From: Gigantopelta aegis
Lineage: Eukaryota > Mollusca > Gastropoda > Neomphalida > Peltospiridae
Assembly (NCBI RefSeq): GCF_016097555.1
Contig: NC_054701.1
Coordinates: 30,453,118-30,517,117 of the forward strand
Length of the DNA: 64,000 nt
Reading direction: 5' to 3'
The notes beneath the pieces were generated by a model. The model did no database searches, had not been told where the DNA came from, and was given only the letters and a program-made list of their open reading frames with translations. Position numbers and translations under genes: made by a program. Below are positions 8,348 through 61,677 of the stretch, piece after piece; position 1 is the first letter of the stretch; every line of letters begins with the position of its first letter.

Positions 8348-8353
8348 TTTAAG
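8348..8353. repeat. Left target-site duplication (tttaag) of the Polinton-like element
   Basis: The hexamer tttaag directly precedes the element's AG terminus and recurs directly after its CT terminus. A 6-bp duplication is what Polinton-type integrases leave. Confidence 0.8.
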
Positions 8354-8383
8354 AGTAGTAGAGGGGGCACTTGAGCACCATGT

Positions 8384-8498
8384 ATGCAAATGAGCTAGGT
8401 CACGTGACCTGTTCTGAGCTCTGATTGGCTGACCTCTAAGGCATGGCCTCTTCTGATTGGCTGATCTCTAAGCGTGGGGGCGTGGCCTAATGACGTCA
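8384..8498 (+). promoter_or_regulatory. Cluster of host-type transcription-factor sites at the TIR tip
   Basis: Within about 115 bp of the left terminus: octamer ATGCAAAT (8384-8391), palindromic E-box GGTCACGTGACC (8398-8409), inverted CCAAT boxes in tgattggctga contexts (near 8424 and 8456), GC-rich GGGGGCGTGG (8476-8485) and CRE TGACGTCA (8491-8498). All recur in the right TIR. The arrangement resembles a viral enhancer or origin-proximal promoter; function is inferred. Confidence 0.5.
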
Positions 8499-8616
8499 CG
8501 TTCAGTGCCTTGACCTCGGGGTCATGCAGCTGGCTGACCTTTAAGCGTGGGGACGCTACTTTAATGAGTTTAACCGTCGGGGGTCCTTTGATGTACATGA
8601 AACAGATAGTGCAGAA

Positions 8617-8902
8617 TGAATGAATGAATGAATGAATCTTTAACGACACCCCAGCACGAAAAATACATCGGCTATTGGGTGTCAAACTATGGTAATGCAA
8701 ATAAATAAAGTGATGATCAACATCAATATAAAAATTCAAGACTGAAACAAAAACAGTGTAAAGAACTGTGCAAAAACACAAATATAACATAATTTTACGG
8801 ATACTGAATTTTACTCAAAACTTCAATTTTGTACTGTATTGGCCATTCTCAAAGAGAATGTTACACCCCTGCACCACGGTGAGGTTACAGCACACGCAGG
8901 GG
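8617..8902 (-). mobile_element. LINE-tail/SINE retroposon nested in the left TIR
   Basis: 286-bp insert with a (gaat)n tail at its left end, thus minus orientation. It carries the tail cacccaatagccgatgta found in several other copies here. It is flanked by a 14-bp duplication, cagatagtgcagaa (8603-8616 and 8903-8916), and is absent from the equivalent point of the right TIR. It therefore arrived after the virus-like element. Confidence 0.8.
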
Positions 8903-9501
8903 CAGATAGTGCAGAAGTCGTTAATGACCCATAGAGTGGTGTCGAATGACCGGGGGGGGGGGGGGGGGGGGGGGGGGTAATTTTAACTGTGACAGCTGTT
9001 CGTTTGATGTACAGGAAACAGATGGTGTGGAAGTCGTTAAGACGGCAAGATAGCATGGGTTTTATGAGTGTGTTAATCGTCGGGGGTCTAAACAGATGGG
9101 GGCGGAAGTCGTTAATCAGATGGCAAGATGGGTTTAATGGATTTATGTGGGCTGTTTAAGGAGAACCAGTCAACGGGGGAGTGGAATATTCCAGAGGAAA
9201 ACCCCCAGGGTTTTGCCAGATGTCGGGGAAAGGTTTGAAACGTGCCCATATACGGCGTTGGCCATGAGTCATCCCAGAACGTGTTCAGACACGTCTTGAG
9301 TGGGGTCTCTGCATAATGAGAAACAGATGTGAGTCAACGAGGGAGTGGAAATTTCCAGAGGGAAAAACCTCAGGGTTTTGCCAGATGTCGGGGGGGGAAG
9401 GTTTGAAACGTGCCCATATACGACGTTGGCCATGAGTCATACAGAACGTGTTCAGACACGTCTTGACCTGAGATAGCGAGGGGATGCTACCTTGGGGGGT
9501 C

Positions 9502-9508
9502 TATAAAA
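9502..9508 (+). promoter_or_regulatory. TATA box upstream of the PC4-like gene
   Basis: TATAAAA sits just inside the left TIR and upstream of the PC4-like reading frame, with a CATTCGCTCAG segment about 25 nt downstream that could serve as an initiator. Confidence 0.5.
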
Positions 9509-9586
9509 ACCCCAGATTCAGGACGCTTGCCATTCGCTCAGCGACACTGCTAGAGAGAAGACGTATACTTACGTTCCTGTGTCTGA

Positions 9587-10033
9587 TTGCGCTGTACTTG
9601 GAAAGAAGGAAAAGCATCGGGATATAATAGAAGCACTACAGAGGTCAGTGTCAAAAACGAAGAAAACGAAACGAGATGCAAACTAAACCTTGGCGGTAAC
9701 GTCTACTTGGTGGCTAAACTGTGGAAGGGGGACATTACCATTCACGTACGTCAGTTCGACGAGGACCGTGGAAAAAAAATTCCCACCAAGAAAGGCGTTT
9801 CTCTGACGATGAAACAGTGGTTAGAACTGGCTCGTGAATCTGGTGAAATTGTGGATGAAGAACCCACGGATATCCGTGAACCCGTCGAAATCGTGGATCA
9901 GACGGGCCCATGGATCAGACGGATGCTGCTCGAGAAACGGACTCGACTCCCTACGATGATGATGCCTACGACGCCGATGACGAATGGGATGGTCTTTCGA
10001 GACATTACTTGTTCTGTCATCGACCCGAAATGA
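9587..10033 (+). pseudogene. PC4-like single-stranded DNA-binding domain protein (start lost), Polinton-like element
   Basis: The frame reads CKLNLGGNVYLVAKLWKGD...HVRQF...KKGVSLTMKQWLELA, the pattern of the PC4/Sub1 C-terminal domain: beta strands, a K-rich loop, then KGISL..EQW. PC4 domains bind single-stranded DNA and act in transcription or replication; virus-like elements sometimes carry them. An in-frame TGA at 9584-9586 precedes the frame and no ATG occurs before the domain, so the start is lost or lies on an undetected exon. Just past the domain, a 17-nt insertion carrying an 11-bp direct repeat (ggatcagacgg at 9895 and 9912) shifts the frame. The sequence continuing in the other frame is the BIR coding region. 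Residues downstream of that shift are probably out of frame. Confidence 0.65.
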
Positions 10034-10177
10034 GAAGATTCTACAGACGTCTCTGCATGTTTGGGTGGTGGCCCATACAGTTGCGCCAGAAACCGAGGGA
10101 ACTCGCCAAGGCCGGTTTCTTCTACACGGGAGACCACGATGCCGTCGTGAATAACACGTTTTGTTTGTTATTAATGT

Positions 10178-10179
<2 letters not shown>
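9910..10179 (+). pseudogene. Truncated BIR (inhibitor-of-apoptosis repeat) domain, Polinton-like element
   Basis: An acidic segment (DDDAYDADDEWD) leads into MRRFYRRLCMFGWWP and then PRELAKAGFFYTGDHDAV. This is the first half of a baculovirus IAP repeat (R..SF..WP....P..LA.AGF.YTG..D.V). The zinc-ligand half (C..C...H...C) is missing: the frame ends at 10179 where a long (GT)n microsatellite begins. IAP-type BIR proteins block caspases or serve as ubiquitin-ligase scaffolds and are carried by several large DNA viruses. The frame overlaps the PC4-like frame and may originally have been fused to it. The BIR assignment is fairly secure from the motif; anti-apoptotic function is inference, and this copy cannot form a zinc-binding fold. 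Confidence 0.7.

Positions 10180-10180
<1 letters not shown>

Positions 10181-10224
<44 letters not shown>
10181..10224 (+). repeat. (GT)n microsatellite and GT-rich degenerate repeat truncating the BIR frame
   Basis: A perfect GT run followed to about 10370 by degenerate units of the type gtgtggccctgagt. It begins exactly where the BIR frame loses similarity, which suggests expansion or slippage replaced the 3' half of the gene. Confidence 0.8.
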
Positions 10225-10228
<4 letters not shown>

Positions 10229-10464
10229 TGGACCTGTGTGTGGCTCTGAGTGTGGCCCCGTGTGTGGCCATGAGTGTGGTCTTGTGGCCCTCCGTGTGGC
10301 CCTGAGTGTAGCCCTGTGGCCCTGACTGTGGCCCTGAGAGTGACCCCGAGAGTGGCCCCTGAGCCGTGCACGAGTTATTCTTTGGGATGAGGGGGGGGGG
10401 GGGCATGGACCATACGTATCACACAAAATTTAATCTTTGTGCGCATGCGCGAAACTATAGAGAG

Positions 10465-10473
10465 TATAAATAA
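10465..10473 (+). promoter_or_regulatory. TATA box upstream of the ATPase gene
   Basis: TATAAATAA lies about 60 nt upstream of the ATG at 10525, in a short leader. It is the second TATA element preceding a gene of this element, consistent with separately transcribed virus-type genes. Confidence 0.5.
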
Positions 10474-10524
10474 AAGGGCAATGGGTAACATCGTCATTTG
10501 AGACAGAACCTTCAGAGGTGCAAC

Positions 10525-10889
10525 ATGTCAGACCAGTACAAGTTGTACGTTCCCGACGCGGACAAGTGGACAGCTTTTACAAGTTGCAAGCCCAAGGCAA
10601 ACTTCAACCTCATTTTCCAGTGCAGTGTGGTGGGAAAAGTCAGATGATGTACAGCGTGGATCGATGTCTAGAACTCTACGATCCCACTTGGAAAAAGGAA
10701 AAAGAGGAACAGAGCAAGCACCCGACACCTAAAGTCGTCATGGTCTCCCCAACGCAACAGGTGGTAGAACAAGCCAAGGCCGAGCAGAAAAGGAAACGAG
10801 AACAGAGCGGCGTGGAACAGAAACGACGAGAGCAGACTCGGCACGTACGAAATAAACATGGACTCTTGGAATCTGAAAATAAGCCTTCC

Positions 10890-10966
<77 letters not shown>

Positions 10967-11723
10967 GCCCTTAAGATTGTTACATCCGTTCACCATGATC
11001 GTGTCGGGACCCACGTCGTGTGGAAAAACATTTTTGTTGTAAAAACTGCTACAGGATGGTAAAATCCACCCGCCTCCCCGGCGCATCATCTGGCTCTACA
11101 AACGATGGCAGCCTCTCTATGATACGATCAAAATGGTTGCTCGAGTAAAATTTGTTCAAGGCATACCCGAGAATTTGGAAAAGGATCGTTATTTGGATCC
11201 CAGAGTCAGAAATCTGATCGTGTTGGATGACCTGATGTCTACAGCTGGAAAAGACTCTCGTATCACCGATCTGTTCACGGAAGGAAGTCACCACAGAAAC
11301 CTCTCGGTGATTGCTATCAACCAAAACCTATATAGCAGCAAAGACCCGACACAGAGAAGAAACTGTCATTACCTGGCACTGTTCAACAACCCCATCGACA
11401 AGCAGCAAGTCCTAACCTTGGCACAGCAGATGTATCCTGGAAATACTCGTCATTTCATGCAACGGTTTGAGGAAGCTACCCACAGGCCCTACGGACATCT
11501 CTTGGTGGACTTGAAACCGACCACGCCCGAACATTGGCGCCTTCGACCTAATGGTTTAGAGACGGGGCCGTCCGAATGGTATAAAAGCACGAACGTAACG
11601 GCGAATGTCTCAGAAGAGTTTCAACCACCGTCGGACAAAGAGCTCTACGTGCAAATCATGCAAAGGAACGCATTTAAGAGAAAACTACCAGGCATACCCG
11701 CCTACGAAGGTGACGACGAATAA
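10525..11723 (+). pseudogene. Packaging ATPase (FtsK/HerA, A32-like) with N-terminal extension and 26-Gln tract; frameshift and in-frame stop
   Basis: The ATG at 10525 opens MSDQYKLYVPDADKW. A one-base slip at the T run 10575-10578 moves the coding frame, which continues from FYKLQAQGKL through a charged region (SPTQQVVEQAKAE). A CAG/CAA run of 26 Gln follows (10890-10967), then the ATPase core. Walker A GPTSCGKT is at 11007-11030, Walker B NLIVLDDLM at 11211-11237, and then FTEGSHHRNLSVIAINQNLY. An in-frame TAA at 11040-11042 separates Walker A from Walker B. The core resembles genome-packaging ATPases of Polinton-like viruses and relatives of poxvirus A32, which pump DNA into capsids. The rest of the frame is open to 11723 and well conserved, so inactivation looks recent. 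The N-terminal part may once have been a separate gene. Codon use is more GC-rich than the host introns. Confidence 0.8.
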
Positions 11724-11762
11724 GAAGATGAGGTAGAGCCCTATCTGAAAAAAGTCAAGAGG

Positions 11763-12841
11763 ATGCAGTCTTGCGATACGTGTGGTCTGGTCTTTAAAAA
11801 CGGGAGTGACTTGCAGCGACATCTACGATTTAAAACGTGCAAGGAGGGAAATGAAGAAGAGGAGCCGTCGTCCGATCTGGAAAACGAAGGCGTACGTCTG
11901 ATGATCGAGCGTGAATTCGACATCAATCGTGATTATATCGAAAGCAAGAGGAAACGCTACGAAGAAAAAAAACATGTCCCAAGATGCCATCGAAAGAAAC
12001 ATGAAGACTTTACAATGGAAGTTATTTAAAGACACGTACGCTCGCTTCCTGGCTTATATGCATTACTTTGATAAAGGCCCCAACACGAGAAAAATTCTAC
12101 AGTCTGTGATTCCGAAAAGAGATCCGAGACCTCAGATCCAATCTAATTAAAATTAGCTCCACTATTACATGTCGATCTAAAGACAGCCAGTTGGAGCTCA
12201 TGTCCACCAATCAAAACCTTACTTGCAGAATCCTGCCAGTGATTTAAAACTAACAACACTGCGTAGTCCCCAATGTCCAGGTAACATTTCGTCTGTAAAT
12301 AATAATTTAAATATTGACCAATCGCACTTCGCCTTTTATAACGTTATTTGGGAGCATACAAATTCTAAAAATATCGGGCGAGTCTATTTTAGTGGCCGCA
12401 GTACAGCGAACCATACCAATACGTACGGGGTGGGTTATTTTACATTAAAAATTATTTATTTATTTATAAAAAACCCCAACTAAATCAGTCTTCAGTTTTA
12501 CATTACAAATTATTTATTTTATAAAATAAAACATGTTTTAAGGCATTCGTAATTCACACGAAACATGTCGTATACCCTCAGGATAATTCGGAATGTTTTC
12601 AAATTATTTTTAAATCACTGGCAGGATTCTGCAAGTAAGGTTTTGATTTGTGGACATAAGCTCCAACTGGCTGTCTTTAGATCCACATGTAATAGTGGAG
12701 CTAATTTTAATTAGATTGCCTCAGATGCGTTCTAAATTAAATCAGTATCGTTCGTGGATCGGCGAATATTTGGACGAACTAGACGGCGACGATACCGATG
12801 GTGATAATACTAATGATGAGGACGAAGATGAGGAGAAATGA
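11763..12841 (+). pseudogene. C2H2 zinc-finger, coiled-coil and acidic-tail protein, interrupted by a frameshift and a MITE
   Basis: The ATG at 11763 opens MQSCDTCGLVFKNGSDLQRH, a C2H2 finger (C-x2-C-x12-H). An acidic then charged helical region follows (EREFDINRDYIESKRKRYEE). An A-run slip near 11965-11972 moves the frame to one starting at the NMSQDAIERN segment, which runs to about 12130. There a 581-bp MITE (12138-12718) with an 8-bp duplication breaks the gene. The frame resumes after the duplication with RSKLNQYRSWIGEYL and a strongly acidic tail ending at 12841. Finger proteins of this layout often accompany this ATPase in invertebrate genomes, in my recollection; their role (DNA binding or packaging adaptor) is unknown. 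Confidence 0.65.
12138..12718. mobile_element. 581-bp hAT-like MITE nested in the zinc-finger gene
   Basis: The ends are near-perfect inverted repeats of about 100 bp (caatctaattaaaattagct at the left, its reverse complement at the right). They are flanked by the 8-bp duplication cctcagat (12130-12137 and 12719-12726). Eight-bp duplications suggest a hAT-type transposase. A solo end of the same family lies at about 8079-8101. No coding potential. Confidence 0.8.
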
Positions 12842-12860
12842 ACACTCATATTATTCACAT

Positions 12861-12900
12861 GTCGCCCTTTAGGGCCTCTCGATGTAACCCAATGTGTGTC

Positions 12901-12939
<39 letters not shown>

Positions 12940-13275
12940 CATATATAACATGCGAGGTTGTCCGAATGATTTTTGTGTTACAGAAGCACCCGACAACGGC
13001 CGAATGCATGGTTCGAACTACCCGATGGGTCGAACAGACTTTGATGCACCGACAGTGTTCGAGCCAATGAGATTCTACTGTATGTAGTTGTCGCCCTTAG
13101 GGCCTCTCGATGTAACCCAATGTGTGTCCATTTTATATATATGTGTAGTTGTCGCCCTTGAGGCCTCTCGATGTAACCCAATGTGTGTCCATTTTATATA
13201 TATGTGTAGTTGTCGCCCTTAAGGCCTCTCGATGTAACCCAATGTGTGTCCATTTTATATATGTGTAGTTTGTGA
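12861..13275 (+). repeat. 61-bp tandem repeat downstream of the Polinton-like genes
   Basis: Units of the type gtcgcccttagggcctctcg...ccattttatatatatg start near 12861, 13090, 13151 and 13212. The first is separated from the other three by a (TA)n run (12907-12936) and about 150 bp of unique sequence. Period is 61 bp in the last three. Confidence 0.8.
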
Positions 13276-13523
13276 TTTGTCATTTAGAAATAAAATGAAA
13301 AAACCCAAACCATTGCGTTTGTTTTTTTGTGTGTTTTACTCCATGACTAGTTTTGTGATTGAATGTCAGTCTCTACCGCTAATTTATAGTAGCAAGGGAT
13401 GTGTGTACAGGACAGCACATACCACGGCCCTTGGCATAATGCACTGGTTAGCCATAGCCTATTGGACCACCGACGGGGATCGATCCTAGATCGACCACTG
13501 TATTTACCCATTTGGTAAAATAT

Positions 13524-13598
<75 letters not shown>

Positions 13599-15175
13599 GT
13601 TTGTTTTTTTGTGTTTTCTACTCTATGTGGCTAGATTTGTGATTGGATATTTCTACCGCTACTTTATAGTAGCAAGAGCTGTGTGTACAGGGCAGCACAT
13701 ACCACGGCCTTTGACATACCAGACATAATACACTGGTTGTCTATAAAGGTTTGTACTCTAGGGAAATACTCGTGTTTCAAATGCAGTTAAAAGATCATAG
13801 GTTACGTTGGAACGTTGAGTTGTAGTCACACGTTCTTTCTTCAAAGCAATGGGCTGGGGTGTTTCACACAAACACACACACGCGCGCGCGCGCACGCACG
13901 CACGCATATTCCTTTCTTTCCTTAAAAATTAAGCCGTCTATACATTCCTTTATTAATGTTTGTAATGGGCTGGGTTGTTACGCACATTCCTTTCTTCCCC
14001 CTACTGGCCACCGAATAAGTGTATCTGCTTTTTCCACTGTATTTCTTTCTGTCTTTGAAAAATATCGGCTGCTTCGCTAAAAATAACCCGGGAAATTAAA
14101 CTCGACTTTGTAAGCTTCGGTGCGTCGTTAAATAAAGCATTTGCTTGTAGCTTCAGGGGTATCATATTTCAGCCACAGCGTAGTAAGAAAGTAATACTTT
14201 GAAGTGACCCGCGTGTGTTTCTCATTACGTATCAATAGCAGACGATATTTCTGTATTATCTAGCTACACATATGTCTCAGTGGGAAGTGATTAATGTTGA
14301 AATAAAGTTTCAAACTATGAGGTTATATTTATTTTTCCGTACCTCTATCCCATTAAGGTTTAAACGCGCGCGCGCGCCAGTTATCTGTGGCTAAGACAGT
14401 GGTGAGTGTAGGGGTGAGAGAGATTATCTGCTCTTACGTTAAATGCCACTACCAACACCCCCGTGTTTATTATTCTTTAAATGGTATATATCGTTTGAGT
14501 ATACATTCAGTATTTATTTAATAGTGATACATATGTAATATTAATGCTTTGTCTGTTTATTTTTGAAATTACCATCGTGCGATCATTGCGAGATATGAAA
14601 GAAGGTCGTATTTCAAAACAAACTAGCAACCTTCTCATTGGCTAATCTTGTTATGAAGTCTCGGGGGCCATCCTCTACGAAAGTCTGGCAATACGAAATA
14701 CTCTATCCCGTTAAGGTTTAAGCACGCCCGCACACACACACACACACACACGCCAGTTATCTGTGGATATCTAAGACAGTGGGAGTTGTGTGGTATGTGC
14801 TATCCTGTCTGCGGGCTGGTGTAGGACCCCTTGCTTCTATAATGTAGCGGGGTTTCGTCTTTATGTTTCGAAAGTACCATATGTTTGACATCCAATAGCC
14901 AATGATTAATAAATCAATGTGCTCTAGTGGTGTCGTTAAACTTTTAAAACTTTTAAAACAAAGCTTACTATTTGTATTTATTTCAACTTATTTCCGTGCT
15001 CATATTTCAATTATGGTTCAAGCACGCTGTCCTGGACACGCGTCAGCCATCTGTGGCTAGTGAAAAGGCTGGGTTATGACCAGTTAATACCCGGATACGA
15101 ACCCCGGTATCTACCCCGGTCTTAACCACCGACTACAGCAATGATTCGGGCATTTCTTGTGACGTCAGACCCCCA
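13276..15175. other. Gene-free right part of the Polinton-like element: microsatellites and SINE debris
   Basis: Holds minus-strand SINE fragments (about 13380-13500 and 13620-13740), a (CT)n run (13528-13596), CA/CG runs (13868-13905), and three copies of a repeat head of the type ttaaggttta...cagttatctgtgg (about 14341, 14705 and 15005). A plus-strand SINE fragment lies at about 14790-14960. No capsid, polymerase or integrase frame could be read. Confidence 0.6.
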
Positions 15176-15863
15176 CGCTATCTCGAGGTCAAGACGTGTC
15201 TGAACACGTTCTGGGATGACTCATGGTGTTCCCACGCCATGACCATATATGGGCACGTTTCAAACGTCGTGGAATTTTCCACTCCCCGTTGACTCACATC
15301 TGGTTGATACACACGTCAAAACGATTAAACCCATCTTGCCATCTGATTAACGACTTCCACCCCATATGTTTAGACCCCCGACGATTAAACACTCATAAAA
15401 CCCACGCTATCTTGCCATCTGATTAACGACTTCCGTCCCCATCTGTTTAGAACCTCGACGGTTAACACACTCATAAAACCCACGCTATCTTGCCGTCTTA
15501 ACGACTTCCACGCCATCTGTTTCCTGTACATCAAACGAACAACTGTCACAGTCAAATAAACCCCCCGTCAGTCGACACCACTCTATGGGTCATTAACGAC
15601 TTCTGCACTATCTGTTTCCTGTACATCAAAGGATCCCCGACCTTTGAACTCATTAAAGTAGCGTCCCCACGCTTAAAGGTCAGCCAGCTGCATGACCCCG
15701 AGGTCAAAGCACTGAACGTGACGTCATTAGGCCACGCCCCCACGCTTAGAGGTCAGCCAATCAGAAGAGGCCACGCCTTAGAGGTCAGCCAATCAGAGCG
15801 CAGGACAGGTCACGTGACCTAGCTCATTTGCATACATGGTGCTCAAGTGCCCCCTCTACTACT
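15176..15863 (-). repeat. Right terminal inverted repeat of the Polinton-like element
   Basis: About 690 bp, inverted relative to the left repeat. It lacks the nested insertion and the internal duplication, so it is the better guide to the ancestral TIR. Three related sub-units with the pattern cgttaa...cagatgg...ttttatgagtg lie in its inner half. Confidence 0.85.
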
Positions 15864-15869
15864 TTTAAG
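15864..15869. repeat. Right target-site duplication (tttaag) of the Polinton-like element
   Basis: Matches 8348-8353 and is followed by sequence resuming the host MITE (aaataaagtgaaatttaacc), so the right boundary is precise. Confidence 0.8.
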
Positions 15870-18211: not shown

Positions 18212-19709
18212 TACTCTTCAAAAGAAGAAACGCAAAACCACATTGTCGTAACATTTGGAGAATTGATTTAATTATTGAATGGTGAGTCCGATAATTACCA
18301 AATGTTGCAGGATTGTTCACAATTCACTCTAGTCCATTGTGAGTAAGTGATAGGACACACCACCAAGGTCAAGGTCATCTGGAGTCAATACCGGGTGTGG
18401 CCTCCGCGTGTGTTGACAACTGCCTGGCACCGCCTGCCCATTGAAGCAACCAGAGTACGGATGACGTCCCGGGGGATGGTGGCCCACTCGGCCTGCAAGG
18501 CTGCTGCCAGCTCGGGCAGGGTCTGGGGCTGTGGTTGTCGCTGTCGGAGGCGTCGGTCCAACTCGTCCCATAGATGCTCAATTGGGTTCAAATCCGGTGA
18601 TATCGATGGCCAAGGAAGGACATTAATGTTGTTGTTCTGTAGGAAAGCCGTTGTGAGACGTGCTGTGTGAGGCCTGGCTTTGTCATGTTGGAACACTGCG
18701 TTGGCGTTGGCCATAACTGGAACGATGTGTGGCCGGAGGATCTGGTCAATGTAGCCCTGTGCATTCAGGTTGCCCTGCACGTGGACCAGGTCAGTTCTGC
18801 CAGTGTGTGAGATGGCTGCCCACACCATGACACTACCCCCGCCGAATCTGTCCACTTCCTGCACGCAGTTTGCCGCATAACGTTCACCACGACGCCTATA
18901 CACGCGACATCTTCCATCATGACGTCGGAGCAGAAATCGGGACTCGTCACTGAACCACACCTGTCTCCATCGCAGTTGAGGCCATTGTCGATGAATCTGG
19001 CACCACTGCAGTCGGAGTCGACGGTGTTGTGGTGTTAAGATGACACCTCGAACTGGACGTCTGGCACGAATTCCTACCTCACGTAGGCGGTTCCGTATTG
19101 TCTGGTCGGATATCCTGCGCAAACCTGGTATTGCTGCGGTTGTGGAGGTGGCAGTAGTCAATCGTTCCCGAAGGTGGCGTACCCGGATGTAGCGGTCCTG
19201 CCCGGGGGTAGTGACTCGTGGTCGACCGGATCTAGGGAGGTCACGTGTTGATCCATGTTGCTGGTAACGGTCCCACAGTCTGGAGGTGGTGCTTGGGGAC
19301 ACATGGAATGCCCTGGCAACGGCCGTTCTGGATTCGCCTGCGTCTAGTCGGCCGATGGCATTGTTTCTCTGCGGTTCACTGAGACGTGGCATGTCCTGGA
19401 TTGTCAACTGTCGGCCAGATACAGAGGCCAGGCAAGCGAACACCCTGCACTTTTATACTGTCGGTGTTCATGTTGCACGTGCAGACAACGCACGTGCAGT
19501 GGTGACATGGTTTGCACGTGGCTGCGTTTTTGCGAATATTCACATTTTGGAACTTTATTGTACAGTAGCTGCGTTTTATCGAATGTAACCGTGGGAATGT
19601 GTTTGGGACATGCAATGACCTTATATTCACAAAGCATGAACCGGTAGGAAACATAAAATCGGAGTTATAACCCATTTGTACCCTTTTGCGTTTCTTTTTT
19701 TGAAGAGTA
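18212..19709 (-). mobile_element. Tc1/mariner element, copy A (1498 bp)
   Basis: Termini tactcttcaaaa...ttttttgaagagta in inverted orientation, inserted at TA inside a (TA)n tract. The length equals copy B (57041-58538) exactly and the sequences are nearly identical; two differences were noted in the stretches compared. Transposase on the minus strand at 18385-19392. Confidence 0.92.
18385..19392 (-). CDS. Tc1-type DD34E transposase, copy A (N238K next to second catalytic Asp)
   Basis: 335 residues from the ATG at 19392; the longer frame to 19443 begins with a non-ATG codon and overlaps the leader. Paired helix-turn-helix DNA-binding regions span residues 1-110 with a GRPR linker motif at 56-59. 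The catalytic triad is D149 (WFSDESRF), D237 (FQHD) and E272 (NPIEHLWDE), with DD34E spacing. Residue 238 is Lys, whereas copy B and the family norm have Asn (DNARPHTA). This single change could impair catalysis although the frame is intact. A TATAAAA box lies about 60 nt upstream of the ATG. High GC content contrasts with the AT-rich surroundings. Confidence 0.9.
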   Translation of the reverse strand: MPRLSEPQRNNAIGRLDAGESRTAVARAFHVSPSTTSRLWDRYQQHGSTRDLPRSGRPRVTTPGQDRYIRVRHLRERLTTATSTTAAIPGLRRISDQTIRNRLREVGIRARRPVRGVILTPQHRRLRLQWCQIHRQWPQLRWRQVWFSDESRFLLRRHDGRCRVYRRRGERYAANCVQEVDRFGGGSVMVWAAISHTGRTDLVHVQGNLNAQGYIDQILRPHIVPVMANANAVFQHDKARPHTARLTTAFLQNNNINVLPWPSISPDLNPIEHLWDELDRRLRQRQPQPQTLPELAAALQAEWATIPRDVIRTLVASMGRRCQAVVNTRGGHTRY

Positions 19710-57292: not shown

Positions 57293-57299
57293 TATAAAA
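57293..57299 (+). promoter_or_regulatory. TATA box of mariner copy B
   Basis: TATAAAA about 60 nt upstream of the transposase ATG (57358); identical in copy A. Confidence 0.5.
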
Positions 57300-57357
57300 G
57301 TGCAGGGTGTTCGCTTGCCTGGCCTCTGTATCTGGCCGACAGTTGACAATCCAGGAC

Positions 57358-58365
57358 ATGCCACGTCTCAGTGAACCGCAGAGAAACAATGCCATCGGCC
57401 GACTAGACGCAGGCGAATCCAGAACGGCCGTTGCCAGGGCATTCCATGTGTCCCCAAGCACCACCTCCAGACTGTGGGACCGTTACCAGCAACATGGATC
57501 AACACGTGACCTCCCTAGATCCGGTCGACCACGGGTCACTACCCCCGGGCAGGACCGCTACATCCGGGTACGCCACCTTCGGGAACGATTGACTACTGCC
57601 ACCTCCACAACCGCAGCAATACCAGGTTTGCGCAGGATATCCGACCAGACAATACGGAACCGCCTACGTGAGGTAGGAATTCGTGCCAGACGTCCAGTTC
57701 GAGGTGTCATCTTAACACCACAACACCGTCGACTCCGACTGCAGTGGTGCCAGATTCATCGACAATGGCCTCAACTGCGATGGAGACAGGTGTGGTTCAG
57801 TGACGAGTCCCGATTTCTGCTCCGACGTCATGATGGAAGATGTCGCGTGTATAGGCGTCGTGGTGAACGTTATGCGGCAAACTGCGTGCAGGAAGTGGAC
57901 AGATTCGGCGGGGGTAGTGTCATGGTGTGGGCAGCCATCTCACACACTGGCAGAACTGACCTGGTCCACGTGCAGGGCAACCTGAATGCACAGGGCTACA
58001 TTGACCAGATCCTCCGGCCACACATCGTTCCAGTTATGGCCAACGCCAACGCAGTGTTCCAACATGACAACGCCAGGCCTCACACAGCACGTCTCACAAC
58101 GGCTTTCCTACAGAACAACAACATTAATGTCCTTCCTTGGCCATCGATATCACCGGATTTGAACCCAATTGAGCATCTATGGGACGAGTTGGACCGACGC
58201 CTCCGACAGCGACAACCACAGCCCCAGACCCTGCCCGAGCTGGCAGCAGCCTTGCAGGCCGAGTGGGCCACCATCCCCCGGGACGTCATCCGTACTCTGG
58301 TTGCTTCAATGGGCAGGCGGTGCCAGGCAGTTGTCAACACACGCGGAGGCCACACCCGGTATTGA
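57358..58365 (+). CDS. Tc1-type DD34E transposase, copy B, intact
   Basis: 335 residues from the ATG at 57358; the frame extends upstream to 57307 without an ATG. It has paired helix-turn-helix regions with GRPR at 56-59 and an intact triad: D149 (WFSDESRF), D237 in HDNARPHTA, and E272 in [13 protein letters not shown]. It ends GGHTRY. It binds the terminal repeats and catalyses cut-and-paste movement into TA sites. No stops or shifts, and matched ends on both sides, so the copy may be active. Confidence 0.93.
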   Translation: MPRLSEPQRNNAIGRLDAGESRTAVARAFHVSPSTTSRLWDRYQQHGSTRDLPRSGRPRVTTPGQDRYIRVRHLRERLTTATSTTAAIPGLRRISDQTIRNRLREVGIRARRPVRGVILTPQHRRLRLQWCQIHRQWPQLRWRQVWFSDESRFLLRRHDGRCRVYRRRGERYAANCVQEVDRFGGGSVMVWAAISHTGRTDLVHVQGNLNAQGYIDQILRPHIVPVMANANAVFQHDNARPHTARLTTAFLQNNNINVLPWPSISPDLNPIEHLWDELDRRLRQRQPQPQTLPELAAALQAEWATIPRDVIRTLVASMGRRCQAVVNTRGGHTRY

Positions 58366-58967: not shown

Positions 58968-61677
58968 TTAGAAGGTGGTGTGTGGGCGACGCGTGGTGAA
59001 GCGCGAGGTGTGCAGTTTCCTGTCCACGCAGTGAGGCAGCGGGAACTTGATCTTGCTGTTCTGTCATTACAAACAAAAAACTAATTAATTAAATACAAAT
59101 AATTTTTTTGTTACTCTGCAATACAATATTTTTATCTGGTTAGAATTTTGTTAACATAATAAGTCTTTGAACAGGTCAGTACATACTACAGACTTTGACA
59201 TGGGGACACTGGTTAGGACAGAAGAAAAAAACAATGTGAGAAATGGCTGACCAAGGCGGTTTGATCTTATGGCCAATACACCTTAGGTGGGTTTTTTTGT
59301 TTAACGACACCACTGGAGCACATTAATTAATCGTCCGCTATTGGATGTCAAACATTTGGTAACTCTGACATGCAGTCATCGGAGGAAACCCGTTACATTT
59401 TTCCTAATGCAGCATGGGATCTTTTATGTGCGTTTTCCCACAGGCAAGAAAGCACATACCATGGCCTTTTTCCAGTTCTGGTGCACTAGTAGGAACGAGA
59501 AAAAAAAACCCCAGTTGAATGGATCCACCGAGGTGGTTCGATCCTACGACACAAGCACCTCAGGCGAGCATTCAACCAACTCAGCTAAATTCCGTCCCTG
59601 CACCTTAGATGAGCACTCTACAGACTGAACAAAGTAAAGCACAATACATTTCCCGTTCTGTGGCATCTTTCCATTACTCAAGTATTAATGAATAATTGTT
59701 GCATCAAAACACCTTTGATATATATCACTTAATTGTTACATCAAAACACCTTTGATATATATCACTTAATTGTTGCATCAAAACACCTTTGATATATACT
59801 GAACCGCAAAAGAAACGCGAGATTTTTAAATGTCATTTCTATATGGTAAATTATAACAATTTATTTCGGGGATGTAACTATCAATATTACAAGACATGCT
59901 GGTTTATGACTGAGACCCAAATTGCAGGTACCCTTTCAACTTTCCATGAAACGACACGCCAAAACGCACCTGTCTCGAAGGCCGTGGGTGGCAGTCGCAA
60001 ACAATTGTCATGAAAACCGAAATGCACGTGCATCTCGTGGAGTTATGGGTATAAAAACCAACTTGAGCCGCGTTCCTGGCATTCGTAATTTGCACGCATC
60101 AGGTATGACCCGATTGTCAGCAGCGCAGAGAGAACGAGCTATCGGCCGATTGCAAGCCGGGCAGCGTGCCCTGGTTGTTGCTAACGCTTACAATGTCCAT
60201 GTCAGCACCATCCATCGTCTACAGCAGCGGTACATCAACACCAACAGCATTGCAGACAGTCACCGCAGCGGGCGCCCCCGGTTGACCACGCCCAGGCAGG
60301 ACCGCTACATCAACCGGCAACACCTCCATGATCGCTTCAGAACGGCCAGCATGACAGCTCGCGCGACCATTGGCACTGGACAGCGACCCATTAGTGACGA
60401 CACGGTACGACGTCGACTGGCCGCCAACAACCTGTTTTGCCGACGTCCCGCTCGAGGACCTGTCCTCACCGCCCGCCACCGTCAGACACGACTACAGTGG
60501 GCTACACAGCACCAACATTGGCGGCATCAACAATGGAGGTTGATAGTCTTCTCTGACGAGAGCCGGTACTGCGTTTCCAACTCGGATGGCAGAGTGAGGG
60601 TGTGGCGTAGGAGGGGTGAACGCTACAGAGACGCATGTGTCCTGGAGAGAGACCCGTGGGGTGGCCAAAGCATCATGGTTTGGGGTGCTATAGGCCTGAA
60701 TCAGAGAATTGGGCCCCATTTGTTCCAAAATGTTGGTGCAGGCAGAGGGAATGGCATCACAGCGCAGCGCTACGTTGACCAGATTCTAACACCTCACATA
60801 GTGCCCTTCTTCACGCGTCACCATAACCACGTGTTCCAGCAGGATAATGCTCGCCCCCACACGGCCAGGATCACCATGGACTTCCTGCGTCAGCACAACA
60901 TCAGAACCATGCCGTGGCCGGCTCTCAGCCCTGATTTGAACCCGATTGAACACCTGTGGGATGAAATCCAGAGACGGCTTAACCAGGTGGTCCCACGGCC
61001 GACAACTCGTGTACAACTGGAGGCAGCTTTCCTGAGGGTGTGGGCACAGGTGCCAATGGCTTTTGTGAACCACCTCGTGCACTCCATGTACAGACGGTGT
61101 ATGGCCGTTTTGAACAGCCAGGGAGGACATACACGGTATTGAACATGTCACGCCCTACAATCTCGATGTGCTGGATCCCCCCACTACCTGAACACAGGCA
61201 AACGACCCAGAGACTGTGGTCAAAGTGCATCCAATAAATTGACTTTTATCAGATTTTTCAAAATTTATCTTTGATATTAATAAATTGAAACATATTTTCT
61301 CAGCCACACATGTGTCGCGTTTCTTTTGCGGTTCAGTATATATATCACTTAATTGTTGCATCAAAACACCTTTGATATATATCACTCCTGGTGCACTGGT
61401 TGGGAAAACACAATCAGAGATATGATTTAATCCAAGCACTCCACCAATTAAGAGTTCTAGATCCTGCTTCATATTCATTCAGAAGTGCACAAGATTTTTT
61501 TAAAAACGATTTGTACAAACTCATTTTTATCCACCAAGACATTAAAAATAAGTCTGAAAAACTCTTACTGGAACTGCTGGATGTTGGGTCTCCTGCACTT
61601 GTTTGCTTGAGTGGACTCCACACGAATAATCTGAATGAACGATGCTCTAGCACGATGTCTAGTGCCCATGTCAACGT
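58968..61677 (-). CDS. RPL18A: Ribosomal protein eL20 (RPL18A), 3' two exons only; gene continues past the right edge
   Basis: Minus-strand exon 61677-61569 (109 nt) follows acceptor GTATGTTTCAG and ends at donor CA|GTAAGA. It encodes [10 protein letters not shown]...IQII...[10 protein letters not shown], matching the eL20 stretch DMGARHRARAHSIQI...KCRRP..KQF. The terminal exon 59055-58968 encodes [14 protein letters not shown]...[12 protein letters not shown] and a TAA stop, matching the eL20 C terminus. A minus-strand AATAAA lies about 20 nt past the stop (58944-58949). eL20 is a large-subunit ribosomal protein. The earlier exons were sought up to 64000 and not found, so the 5' part lies outside. 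Oddities: the junction keeps frame only with the second AG (AACAG|C), which drops two usually conserved residues, and the C-terminal 20 residues are unusually divergent for this family. A slightly broken paralogue is therefore possible. The intron (59056-61568) carries a SINE and an intact mariner. Confidence 0.75.
59290..59600 (-). mobile_element. SINE (antisense), head type 3, tail type 2, in the RPL18A intron
   Basis: Left ttgtttaacgacaccactgg; right ttcaaccaactcagctaaatt as a near tRNA A-box reversed, with gtggttcgatcctacgac as B-box region. Confidence 0.75.
59694..59796 (+). repeat. 37-bp tandem repeat, split by the third mariner
   Basis: Unit starts aattgttgcatcaaaacacc; nearly three copies here and just over one after the transposon (61339-61385). 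Confidence 0.85.
59797..61338 (+). mobile_element. Second Tc1/mariner family, 1542 bp, intact
   Basis: Termini tactgaaccgcaaaagaaac and, in reverse, gtttcttttgcggttcagta, flanked by TA (59795-59796 and 61339-61340). Inserted into a gatatatatcac unit of a tandem repeat in the RPL18A intron. Ends and protein differ from copies A and B, but share the gaaacgc core in the TIR. Confidence 0.92.
60105..61142 (+). CDS. Tc1-type DD34E transposase, second family, intact
   Basis: 345 residues from the ATG at 60105, whose context ([16 protein letters not shown]) aligns with the start of the other transposase. A TATAAAAA box lies at 60050-60057. GRPR occurs at 56-59; catalytic D151 (VFSDESRY), D247 ([10 protein letters not shown]) and E282 ([13 protein letters not shown]), with 34 residues between the last two. 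It ends GGHTRY. The long upstream open frame from 59922 begins with a non-ATG codon and crosses the TATA box, so it is not used. No disruptive mutation seen. Confidence 0.93.
   Translation: MTRLSAAQRERAIGRLQAGQRALVVANAYNVHVSTIHRLQQRYINTNSIADSHRSGRPRLTTPRQDRYINRQHLHDRFRTASMTARATIGTGQRPISDDTVRRRLAANNLFCRRPARGPVLTARHRQTRLQWATQHQHWRHQQWRLIVFSDESRYCVSNSDGRVRVWRRRGERYRDACVLERDPWGGQSIMVWGAIGLNQRIGPHLFQNVGAGRGNGITAQRYVDQILTPHIVPFFTRHHNHVFQQDNARPHTARITMDFLRQHNIRTMPWPALSPDLNPIEHLWDEIQRRLNQVVPRPTTRVQLEAAFLRVWAQVPMAFVNHLVHSMYRRCMAVLNSQGGHTRY

What the first reader, a model, noticed from the sequence alone, without database searches (positions are those of the whole stretch)
8354..15863. A compact 7.5-kb Polinton-like element that lacks polymerase and integrase
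Long inverted termini beginning AG, a 6-bp duplication and a packaging ATPase place it with Polinton-type viruses. Its gene set (PC4-like, BIR, ATPase, C2H2) and size fit no class I can name. It could be a distinct small virus-like lineage that depends on a helper for replication and integration.
Basis: partly seen in the sequence, partly recalled or inferred. Interest (0 to 1): 0.9.

Follow-up and report, generated by a model that had tools for sequence, protein, structure and literature searches.

The report
Compact satellite-like Polinton family in snail
A deep-sea snail genome carries many short virus-like elements that keep their own DNA-packaging gene but seem to lack the genes to copy their DNA, insert it or build a shell, so they probably live off larger relatives in the same genome.

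Summary
The window copy (8354-15863) has (AGT)2//(ACT)2 ends, a 6-bp target duplication, ~0.7-kb inverted repeats and decayed PC4, BIR, PX and ATPase-C2H2 genes. It is not a one-off deletion. In the same genome (Gigantopelta aegis, inferred), 18 of 20 loci fetched by the terminal repeat carry the ATPase; 10 of 20 have all four genes in the same order; 18 of 20 share the non-coding right segment; spans are 5.7-8.8 kb in 15 of 16 measurable loci. Flanks are unrelated, and 7 of 16 copies have perfect target duplications. Pooled dN/dS between copies is 0.33-0.62 for the four genes. None of 150 scored ATPase places lies within 25 kb of 85 PolB places; the ATPase type of a PolB element does so in 32 of 50 (15 kb). 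One PolB contig shares the terminal repeat (95%), and one PolB/integrase element shares PX (86-90% over 96 aa), but both have a different ATPase (35-40%). Best explanation: a high-copy non-autonomous Polinton family, probably a satellite supplying its own packaging ATPase to helper capsids. Helper use and packaging are inferred, not shown.

The parts
8348..8353 (.). left copy of the 6-bp target-site duplication TTTAAG
   Evidence: read directly; identical hexamer at 15864-15869
8354..8616 (+). left terminal inverted repeat, outer part, starting AGTAGTAG
   Evidence: 96.2% to 15601-15863
8617..8902 (.). SINE-like insert in the left terminal repeat, flanked by a 14-bp duplication (8603-8616 / 8903-8916)
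   Evidence: 8 matching rows elsewhere in the window; duplication read directly
8903..9483 (+). left terminal inverted repeat, inner part
   Evidence: blastn pieces of 74-85% against the right arm; global alignment 17.6% mismatches
9502..9509 (+). TATA-like motif before the PC4 gene (motif reading only)
   Evidence: read directly
9587..10033 (+). PC4-like gene frame (ssDNA-binding coactivator domain)
   Evidence: Pfam PF02229 E 1.7e-11; relative P0121 of Gigantopelta aegis, 79% over 70 aa; PC4 hits in 14 of 20 loci
9880..10179 (+). BIR gene frame; in this copy only half of the BIR domain remains
   Evidence: PF00653 E 1.2e-5, profile 1-38 of 70; 1-63 in P0123 and 1-69 in another copy; BIR hits in 16 of 20 loci
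10465..10476 (+). TATA-like motif before PX/ATPase (motif reading only)
   Evidence: read directly
10525..10860 (+). PX: small conserved gene (113 aa from the first Met in an open copy), frame broken here
   Evidence: relatives P0122, P0124; PX hits in 16 of 20 loci; 86-90% over 96 aa to the PX of a PolB-bearing element
10860..11723 (+). packaging-type ATPase (Pox_A32/Adeno_IVa2-like), decayed in this copy
   Evidence: 932 relatives; Pfam on family members; 18 of 20 loci
11724..12026 (+). C2H2 finger region, same frame as the ATPase in open copies
   Evidence: zf-C2H2 E 5e-4, below the curated cut-off; C2H2 in the ATPase frame of other copies
12136..12719 (.). MITE-like insert with inverted ends, splitting the acidic tail
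   Evidence: 115-nt arms 96.5%; an 8-bp flanking repeat (CCTCAGAT) read directly
12720..12841 (+). remaining acidic tail after the insert
   Evidence: by position and frame; the window aligns to 60 of 80 residues of another copy's tail frame
12842..15169 (.). non-coding right segment with microsatellites, 61-bp repeats and SINE pieces, shared between copies
   Evidence: found in 18 of 20 loci, in 14 over at least 1,381 of 2,328 bases; no gene family
15170..15863 (-). right terminal inverted repeat, ending CTACTACT
   Evidence: 78 matches in the own genome to 15176-15863
15864..15869 (.). right copy of the target-site duplication TTTAAG

Best explanation
The window holds a decayed copy of a high-copy, compact (about 5.7-8.8 kb) non-autonomous Polinton/Maverick family. 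Shown: many separate insertions share terminal repeats, gene order (TIR - PC4 - BIR - PX - ATPase/C2H2 - non-coding - TIR) and non-coding segment, and their genes differ less at amino-acid-changing than at silent sites. No PolB, protease or tested capsid-region gene of the examined PolB elements was found in the 23 loci, and integrase only in one atypical locus. PolB places are common in the same genome, and one examined element has PolB, integrase and protease genes close together. Inferred: such larger elements act as helpers. Their integrase recognises the shared ends and their protein-primed polymerase copies the DNA. Inferred and less sure: the compact element is a capsid-using satellite. 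It keeps its own DNA-packaging ATPase with zinc fingers, plus a possibly virion-associated gene (PX), to load its DNA into helper shells. PC4 would assist DNA replication or transcription, and BIR would keep the cell alive.
For: Compact form: 18 of 20 terminal-repeat loci carry the ATPase, 10 of 20 all four genes, in the same order. Two loci picked by ATPase alone also have terminal repeats on both sides; one spans 5,803 bp with a perfect TSD. Separate insertion: perfect 6-bp TSD in 7 of 16 copies, one mismatch in 2, and no match between flanks of different copies among the 12 with placed ends. The non-coding segment is shared by 18 of 20 loci, so the short form itself was multiplied. Pooled dN/dS: PC4 0.62, BIR 0.37, PX 0.33, ATPase 0.44. 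Scale: 150 ATPase places scored of 1,516 first-look candidates, 134 without a stop in the match. 0 of 150 within 25 kb of 85 PolB places, against 32 of 50 PolB-type ATPases within 15 kb. Candidate helpers: a PolB place with rve+chromodomain integrase, adenovirus-type protease and its own ATPase nearby; a PolB contig whose outer terminal repeat is about 95% identical to the window's arms, which are 96% to each other; PX 86-90% over 96 aa in three compact copies. The two ATPase types are 35-40% identical and split in the tree (support at least 0.946).
Against: No virion, packaging or mobilisation was tested. The link between terminal repeat and PolB rests on one 10.8-kb contig whose right end and integrase were not seen and which holds a retroelement-like piece between repeat and PolB. 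By reading the lists, no other terminal-repeat match has a PolB match beside it. The ends of the C5 element were not found, so its genes are grouped by proximity. In one search every copy other than the reference has a stop or frame break in at least one gene, or lacks a gene. Compact copies fall into at least two terminal-repeat subtypes (about 95% and 75% to the PolB contig); a helper for the second is unknown. Capsid absence rests on Pfam silence and on a 473-aa helper ORF not proved to be capsid. The acidic tail had the weakest ratio (dN/dS 0.69, 12 pairs). Only the best candidates are scored, so genome counts are partial.
Confidence: 0.6

Rival explanations
1. Purely genomic non-autonomous transposons: a helper integrase mobilises the compact elements by their ends, and the ATPase, PX, PC4 and BIR genes serve no packaging role.
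For: No particle was shown here; shared ends alone would allow trans-mobilisation; host-like accessory genes (PC4, BIR) are present.
Against: dN/dS well below 1 for PX and ATPase and a packaging-type ATPase unlike the one of the examined PolB elements are hard to explain if the genes are idle.
Confidence: 0.27
2. A small autonomous virus or transposon with an unrecognised replication and integration gene.
For: About 2.3 kb without known genes is shared between copies, with shared frames of up to 191 aa in 10 of 15 copies.
Against: Those frames are rich in simple repeats, and the window's segment matches no gene family and holds SINE pieces; end motif and 6-bp duplication are those of rve-integrase elements.
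Confidence: 0.08
3. One ordinary 15-20 kb Polinton that lost its middle: a simple internal deletion.
For: The window copy is decayed; eroded Mavericks are common elsewhere (PMC8097293, PMC8504770).
Against: Same short structure and same non-coding segment in many insertions; ATPase type differs from that of the examined PolB elements.
Confidence: 0.03
4. Segmental duplication or assembly artefact multiplied one copy.
For: Many similar copies; some sit on small contigs.
Against: Unrelated flanks and different target duplications; copies on many contigs and median dS of 0.2-0.28.
Confidence: 0.02

Closest known systems
Polintons/Mavericks (vertebrate Mavericks, PMC8097293)
   Same: (AGT)2//(ACT)2 ends, 6-bp target duplication, terminal repeats within the 46-1,447 bp range, packaging-type ATPase
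   Different: mostly 5.7-8.8 kb instead of 12.7-24.6 kb; no PolB, protease or recognised capsid gene, integrase in one atypical locus only; C2H2 fingers in the ATPase frame; PC4 and BIR genes
PolB-bearing Polintons of the same genome (C5 place; contig C3694)
   Same: outer terminal repeat about 95% (C3694), PX 86-90% over 96 aa (C5), a PC4 stub beside the terminal repeat (C3694; 36 aa, 56%)
   Different: they carry PolB (both), integrase with chromodomain and adenovirus-type protease (C5), and an ATPase only 35-40% identical
Virophages and phage capsid-using satellites such as P4 and PICIs (recalled; analogy only)
   Same: small genome, dependence on a larger relative, own packaging-related gene in some
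   Different: animal host and integrated Polinton helper; dependence and packaging not shown; no sequence kinship tested
Adintoviruses/meldviruses (PMC11071296)
   Same: animal-associated; genomes lacking recognisable PolB and integrase are mentioned there, as are zinc-finger genes and an FtsK/HerA-like ATPase in a clam adomavirus
   Different: those genomes pair with adenovirus-class virion proteins; here no hexon, penton or PolB was recognised

Membership tests
Polinton/Maverick | (AGT)2//(ACT)2 or (AG)3//(CT)3 end motif | tested here: met
   read directly in the window; in other copies the scan looked for it with up to one mismatch, so it is partly by construction there; motif described in PMC8097293
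Polinton/Maverick | 6-bp target-site duplication | tested here: met
   perfect in 7 of 16 incl. the window, one mismatch in 2, two in 2, none in 1, ends not placed in 4; perfect in L043
Polinton/Maverick | long terminal inverted repeats | tested here: met
   about 0.7 kb
Polinton/Maverick | FtsK/A32-type packaging ATPase | tested here: met
   by sequence family; the fold comparison was not available
Polinton/Maverick | protein-primed PolB | tested here: not met
   Pfam, window; PolB of C3694 matched in 0 of 23 loci; 0 of 150 ATPase places near PolB
Polinton/Maverick | rve integrase | tested here: not met
   integrase match in 1 of 23 loci (L013, which lacks this ATPase)
Polinton/Maverick | major and minor capsid genes | tested here: inconclusive
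   no Pfam family in the window and no match to the 473-, 184- and 128-aa ORFs of the C5 element in 23 loci, but these are not proved to be capsid genes
Polinton/Maverick | adenovirus-type protease | tested here: not met
   C5 protease matched in 0 of 23 loci
Satellite of an autonomous element | shares ends with an element that has replication and integration genes | tested here: inconclusive
   terminal repeat about 95% on PolB contig C3694, but a single contig, integrase and right end not seen there
Satellite of an autonomous element | mobilised or packaged by the helper | not testable with these tools
   needs particles, reads or experiments
Adintovirus | PolB with OTU-like domain plus hexon | tested here: not met
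   PolB not found; hexon not tested by structure

The most novel reading that the evidence does not exclude
An old lineage of capsid-using satellites of Polintons in molluscs: compact elements with their own packaging ATPase lineage, distinct from that of their helpers and shared with bivalves, that redirect helper shells to their own DNA, as phage satellites do. They could be among the most abundant virus-derived elements of the snail genome.
Probability: 0.35. Interest if true: 0.92.

Novelty: new variant of a known kind. Interest (0 to 1): 0.82.

Why it matters
Satellites that borrow capsids are well known for phages and giant viruses (recalled), but my searches listed none for animal Polintons (listings only). 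A family with at least 150 similar ATPase places (1,516 unconfirmed candidates), kept under selection for its own packaging-type ATPase, would be indirect evidence that animal Polintons make particles or did so recently; for vertebrate Mavericks such particles had not been observed (PMC8097293, start of abstract in a listing). It may also explain some 'inhibitor of apoptosis' gene models of this snail as mobile-element genes.

Tried and rejected
Ruled out: the window as a one-off deletion; the 12.84-15.17 kb segment as insertions private to the window, which I believed until; homology of the acidic tail with a bivalve-type tail (P0096), which was not above shuffles (57 of 1,000 reach the score). 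Nothing found: viral contigs, prokaryote genomes, tRNA and Rfam scans. The PX fold was of low confidence (pLDDT 63.6) and not used; the ATPase model (pLDDT 72.5) could not be compared with folds.

Weak points of the counts: the 85 PolB places and 50 PolB-type ATPase places were collapsed by hand, and rows between 45 and 80% identity were dropped. The 150 ATPase places are the best-scoring of 1,516 candidates, so they favour open copies, and one search gave 1,188 candidates for the other ATPase type, so the two candidate sets may overlap. The two ATPase-picked loci were my choice, 2 of 6 first asked for. Target duplications were chosen as the best match within a search range; in L027 and L028 the two ends themselves differ at 5 and 4 of 14 bases. 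The ATPase tree used 27 of 120 listed relatives, all found with the compact ATPase as query, so PolB-type ATPases of other molluscs were not sampled. dN/dS pairs (Nei-Gojobori) are not independent and use one open copy as reference.
Full report
WHAT IS IN THE WINDOW. The element runs from 8354 to 15863, exactly as reported. Its ends are AGTAGTAG...CTACTACT, flanked by TTTAAG on both sides. The outer 263 nt of the arms differ at 10 positions. The repeat continues inward to about 9483/15170 with more divergence and gaps. The left arm is interrupted by a SINE-like insert with a 14-bp duplication. On the plus strand lie a PC4-like frame, half a BIR domain, a small gene I call PX, an A32/IVa2-type ATPase and a C2H2 region with an acidic tail. 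The ATPase frame has stops and frame breaks and the tail is split by a MITE-like insert, so this copy is a fossil. From 12842 to 15169 no gene family is recognised.

WHOSE GENOME. PC4 and PX searches returned Gigantopelta aegis proteins (P0121, P0123). Contig C5 of the window's assembly is 40,821,028 bases long, the length listed for the contig of P0121. I infer that the window comes from this vent snail. P0123, named 'putative inhibitor of apoptosis', matches the BIR, PX and C2H2 parts in the element's order, so at least one annotated gene model is probably an element copy.

OTHER COPIES. The right terminal repeat has 78 matches in the genome, from 40 scored of 454 candidates. I fetched 20 stretches around such matches. 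An inverted pair lies inside the stretch in 16 of 20; its span is 5.7-8.8 kb in 15 of 16 and 3.7 kb in L024, and in L026 the outermost pair is AT-rich and doubtful. 18 of 20 carry the ATPase (not L013, L023), 14 PC4, 16 BIR, 16 PX; 10 have all four, in the order PC4 - BIR - PX - ATPase/C2H2. L023 gave no match to any of these genes; its longest frames look like a retroelement (by eye). L013 has PC4, BIR and an integrase-like gene but no ATPase, a second compact type. In L020 the ATPase is split by about 5 kb and in L022 it is degraded. Two further loci were chosen by ATPase alone. L043 spans 5,803 bp with a perfect target duplication; L042 has repeats on both sides with its ends cut by the stretch. 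Both have BIR, PX and ATPase; PC4 was found in L042 only.

SEPARATE INSERTIONS OF THE SHORT FORM. In 16 copies tested, a perfect 6-bp duplication adjoins the ends in 7, one mismatch in 2, two in 2; one gave no matching hexamer and 4 gave no placeable ends. Flanks of the 12 copies with placed ends do not match between copies (one 31-base match within L011). The window's 2.3-kb non-coding segment is found in 18 of 20 loci, over at least 1,381 of 2,328 bases in 14. The segment was thus part of the element when it multiplied. I had first taken it for insertions private to the window; that was wrong.

SELECTION. Aligned codons between the window and up to 20 loci give pooled dN/dS of 0.62 (PC4, 105 pairs), 0.37 (BIR, 150), 0.33 (PX, 134), 0.44 (ATPase, 171) and 0.69 (tail, 12); dN was below dS in 102, 145, 129, 171 and 12 pairs. 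Decay after insertion pushes the ratio up, so selection between multiplication events was probably stronger. This is why I do not think the genes are idle passengers.

SCALE AND SEPARATION FROM PolB. The ATPase piece has 1,516 first-look candidates; 150 were scored, all at least 92% identical, 134 without a stop in the match. PolB (PF03175) gives 124 matches from 91 scored of 211 candidates, collapsed by hand to 85 places. None of the 150 ATPase places lies within 25 kb of a PolB place. For the ATPase of a PolB element the same kind of test gives 32 of 50 places (80% identity or more) within 15 kb. Of 59 rows at 30-45% identity, 12 are near PolB; some of the 59 are compact-type places.

POSSIBLE HELPERS. 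Near the PolB at C5:14.058 Mb (open frame 1,614 aa) lie an rve integrase with chromodomain (E 3.2e-16 and 1.8e-8), an adenovirus-type protease (4e-5), a PX gene and an ATPase on the other strand. I group them by proximity; inverted ends were not found. Its PX is 86-90% identical to PX of three compact copies over 96 aa, 72% over a longer stretch with gaps; its ATPase is 35-38% identical to compact ones. PX there lies between the integrase and a 473-aa ORF followed by the protease; by position it may be the PW gene of vertebrate Mavericks (PMC8097293, section 7), an inference. Contig C3694 has a terminal repeat whose outer 260 nt are 94.6-95.3% identical to the window's two arms (the arms are 96.2% to each other), then a PC4 stub, a retroelement-like piece, a 1,102-aa PolB frame (2.6e-36) and an ATPase of the helper type, 37-40% to compact ones. 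The contig ends before any right repeat, and no integrase was seen on it. Other compact copies have a terminal repeat only about 75% identical to it. Seven proteins of these two elements (integrase, protease, PolB and four ORFs) were sought in the window and 22 loci: one locus, L013, matched, with the integrase.

HISTORY. In a tree of 33 ATPases the four compact ones fall among mollusc and metagenome relatives, apart from the two PolB-element ATPases (support at least 0.946; re-rooting leaves open whether 1.0 applies). Named relatives include Mytilus, Mercenaria and Mya. The compact ATPase lineage therefore looks older than this snail, but whether bivalve copies sit in compact elements could not be seen, and the sampling favours this type.

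MECHANISM. Shown: shared ends, separate insertions with the Polinton duplication, conserved genes, no PolB found. Inferred: helper integrase and polymerase act in trans on the shared ends. Inferred with less certainty: the ATPase chooses element DNA and drives it into helper capsids. Its open frame has C2H2 matches before and after the motor domain in one of two copies scanned, and after it in the other. PX may accompany it; PC4 may assist replication or transcription; BIR may delay cell death. The roles of PC4 and BIR come from general knowledge of these domains.

LITERATURE. Intact vertebrate Mavericks are 12.7-24.6 kb, commonly with end motif (AGT)2//(ACT)2, repeats of 46-1,447 bp and 6-bp duplications, and most copies are eroded (PMC8097293: sections 6 and 7; passages). 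Polinton gene content: PMC4028283 (passages). Meldviruses without recognisable PolB and integrase: PMC11071296 (section 16). Mavericks are known in mollusc genomes: PMC10294476 and PMC8905726 (passages). Hessian-fly Maverick consensuses are 600-4,500 bp with only polymerase or integrase domains (PMC8504770, passages). In two G. aegis genome papers the words Maverick and Polinton occur 0 times in the main text; PMC7895826 lists IAP genes in a figure legend beside transposable elements (passages). Six fixed phrases for non-autonomous or satellite Polintons gave no paper; wider searches were seen as listings only. Subscription journals and repeat databases are not covered.

Noticed in passing
L013 (G000:C6:54498200-54505700): A second compact type: terminal repeats, PC4, BIR and an integrase-like gene (53% to the C5 integrase), but no ATPase match; it could be a different division of labour among small Polintons.
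   Followed up: partly
P0123, G. aegis 'putative inhibitor of apoptosis'; PMC7895826 figure legend: Element BIR genes may inflate the inhibitor-of-apoptosis genes listed for this snail.
   Followed up: no
window 18385-19452 (-), 57298-58365 (+), 59910-61142 (+): Three open Tc1/mariner-type transposase frames; the first two translate almost identically, suggesting recent activity. Pfam was run on the first and third.
   Followed up: no
window 10182-10363: GT run followed by a 12-bp minisatellite between BIR and PX; the stretch 10231-10460 is found in 15 of 20 loci. By eye, an antisense frame resembles the repeat-rich start of the ATPase frame on L044.
   Followed up: no
L016 (G000:C1:31845500-31854900): One compact copy holds two ATPase-C2H2 stretches in tandem.
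   Followed up: no
P0045, named as Candidatus Thiodiazotropha taylori MAG protein: A compact-type ATPase in a bacterial MAG, probably bivalve host DNA in the bin (host link recalled).
   Followed up: no
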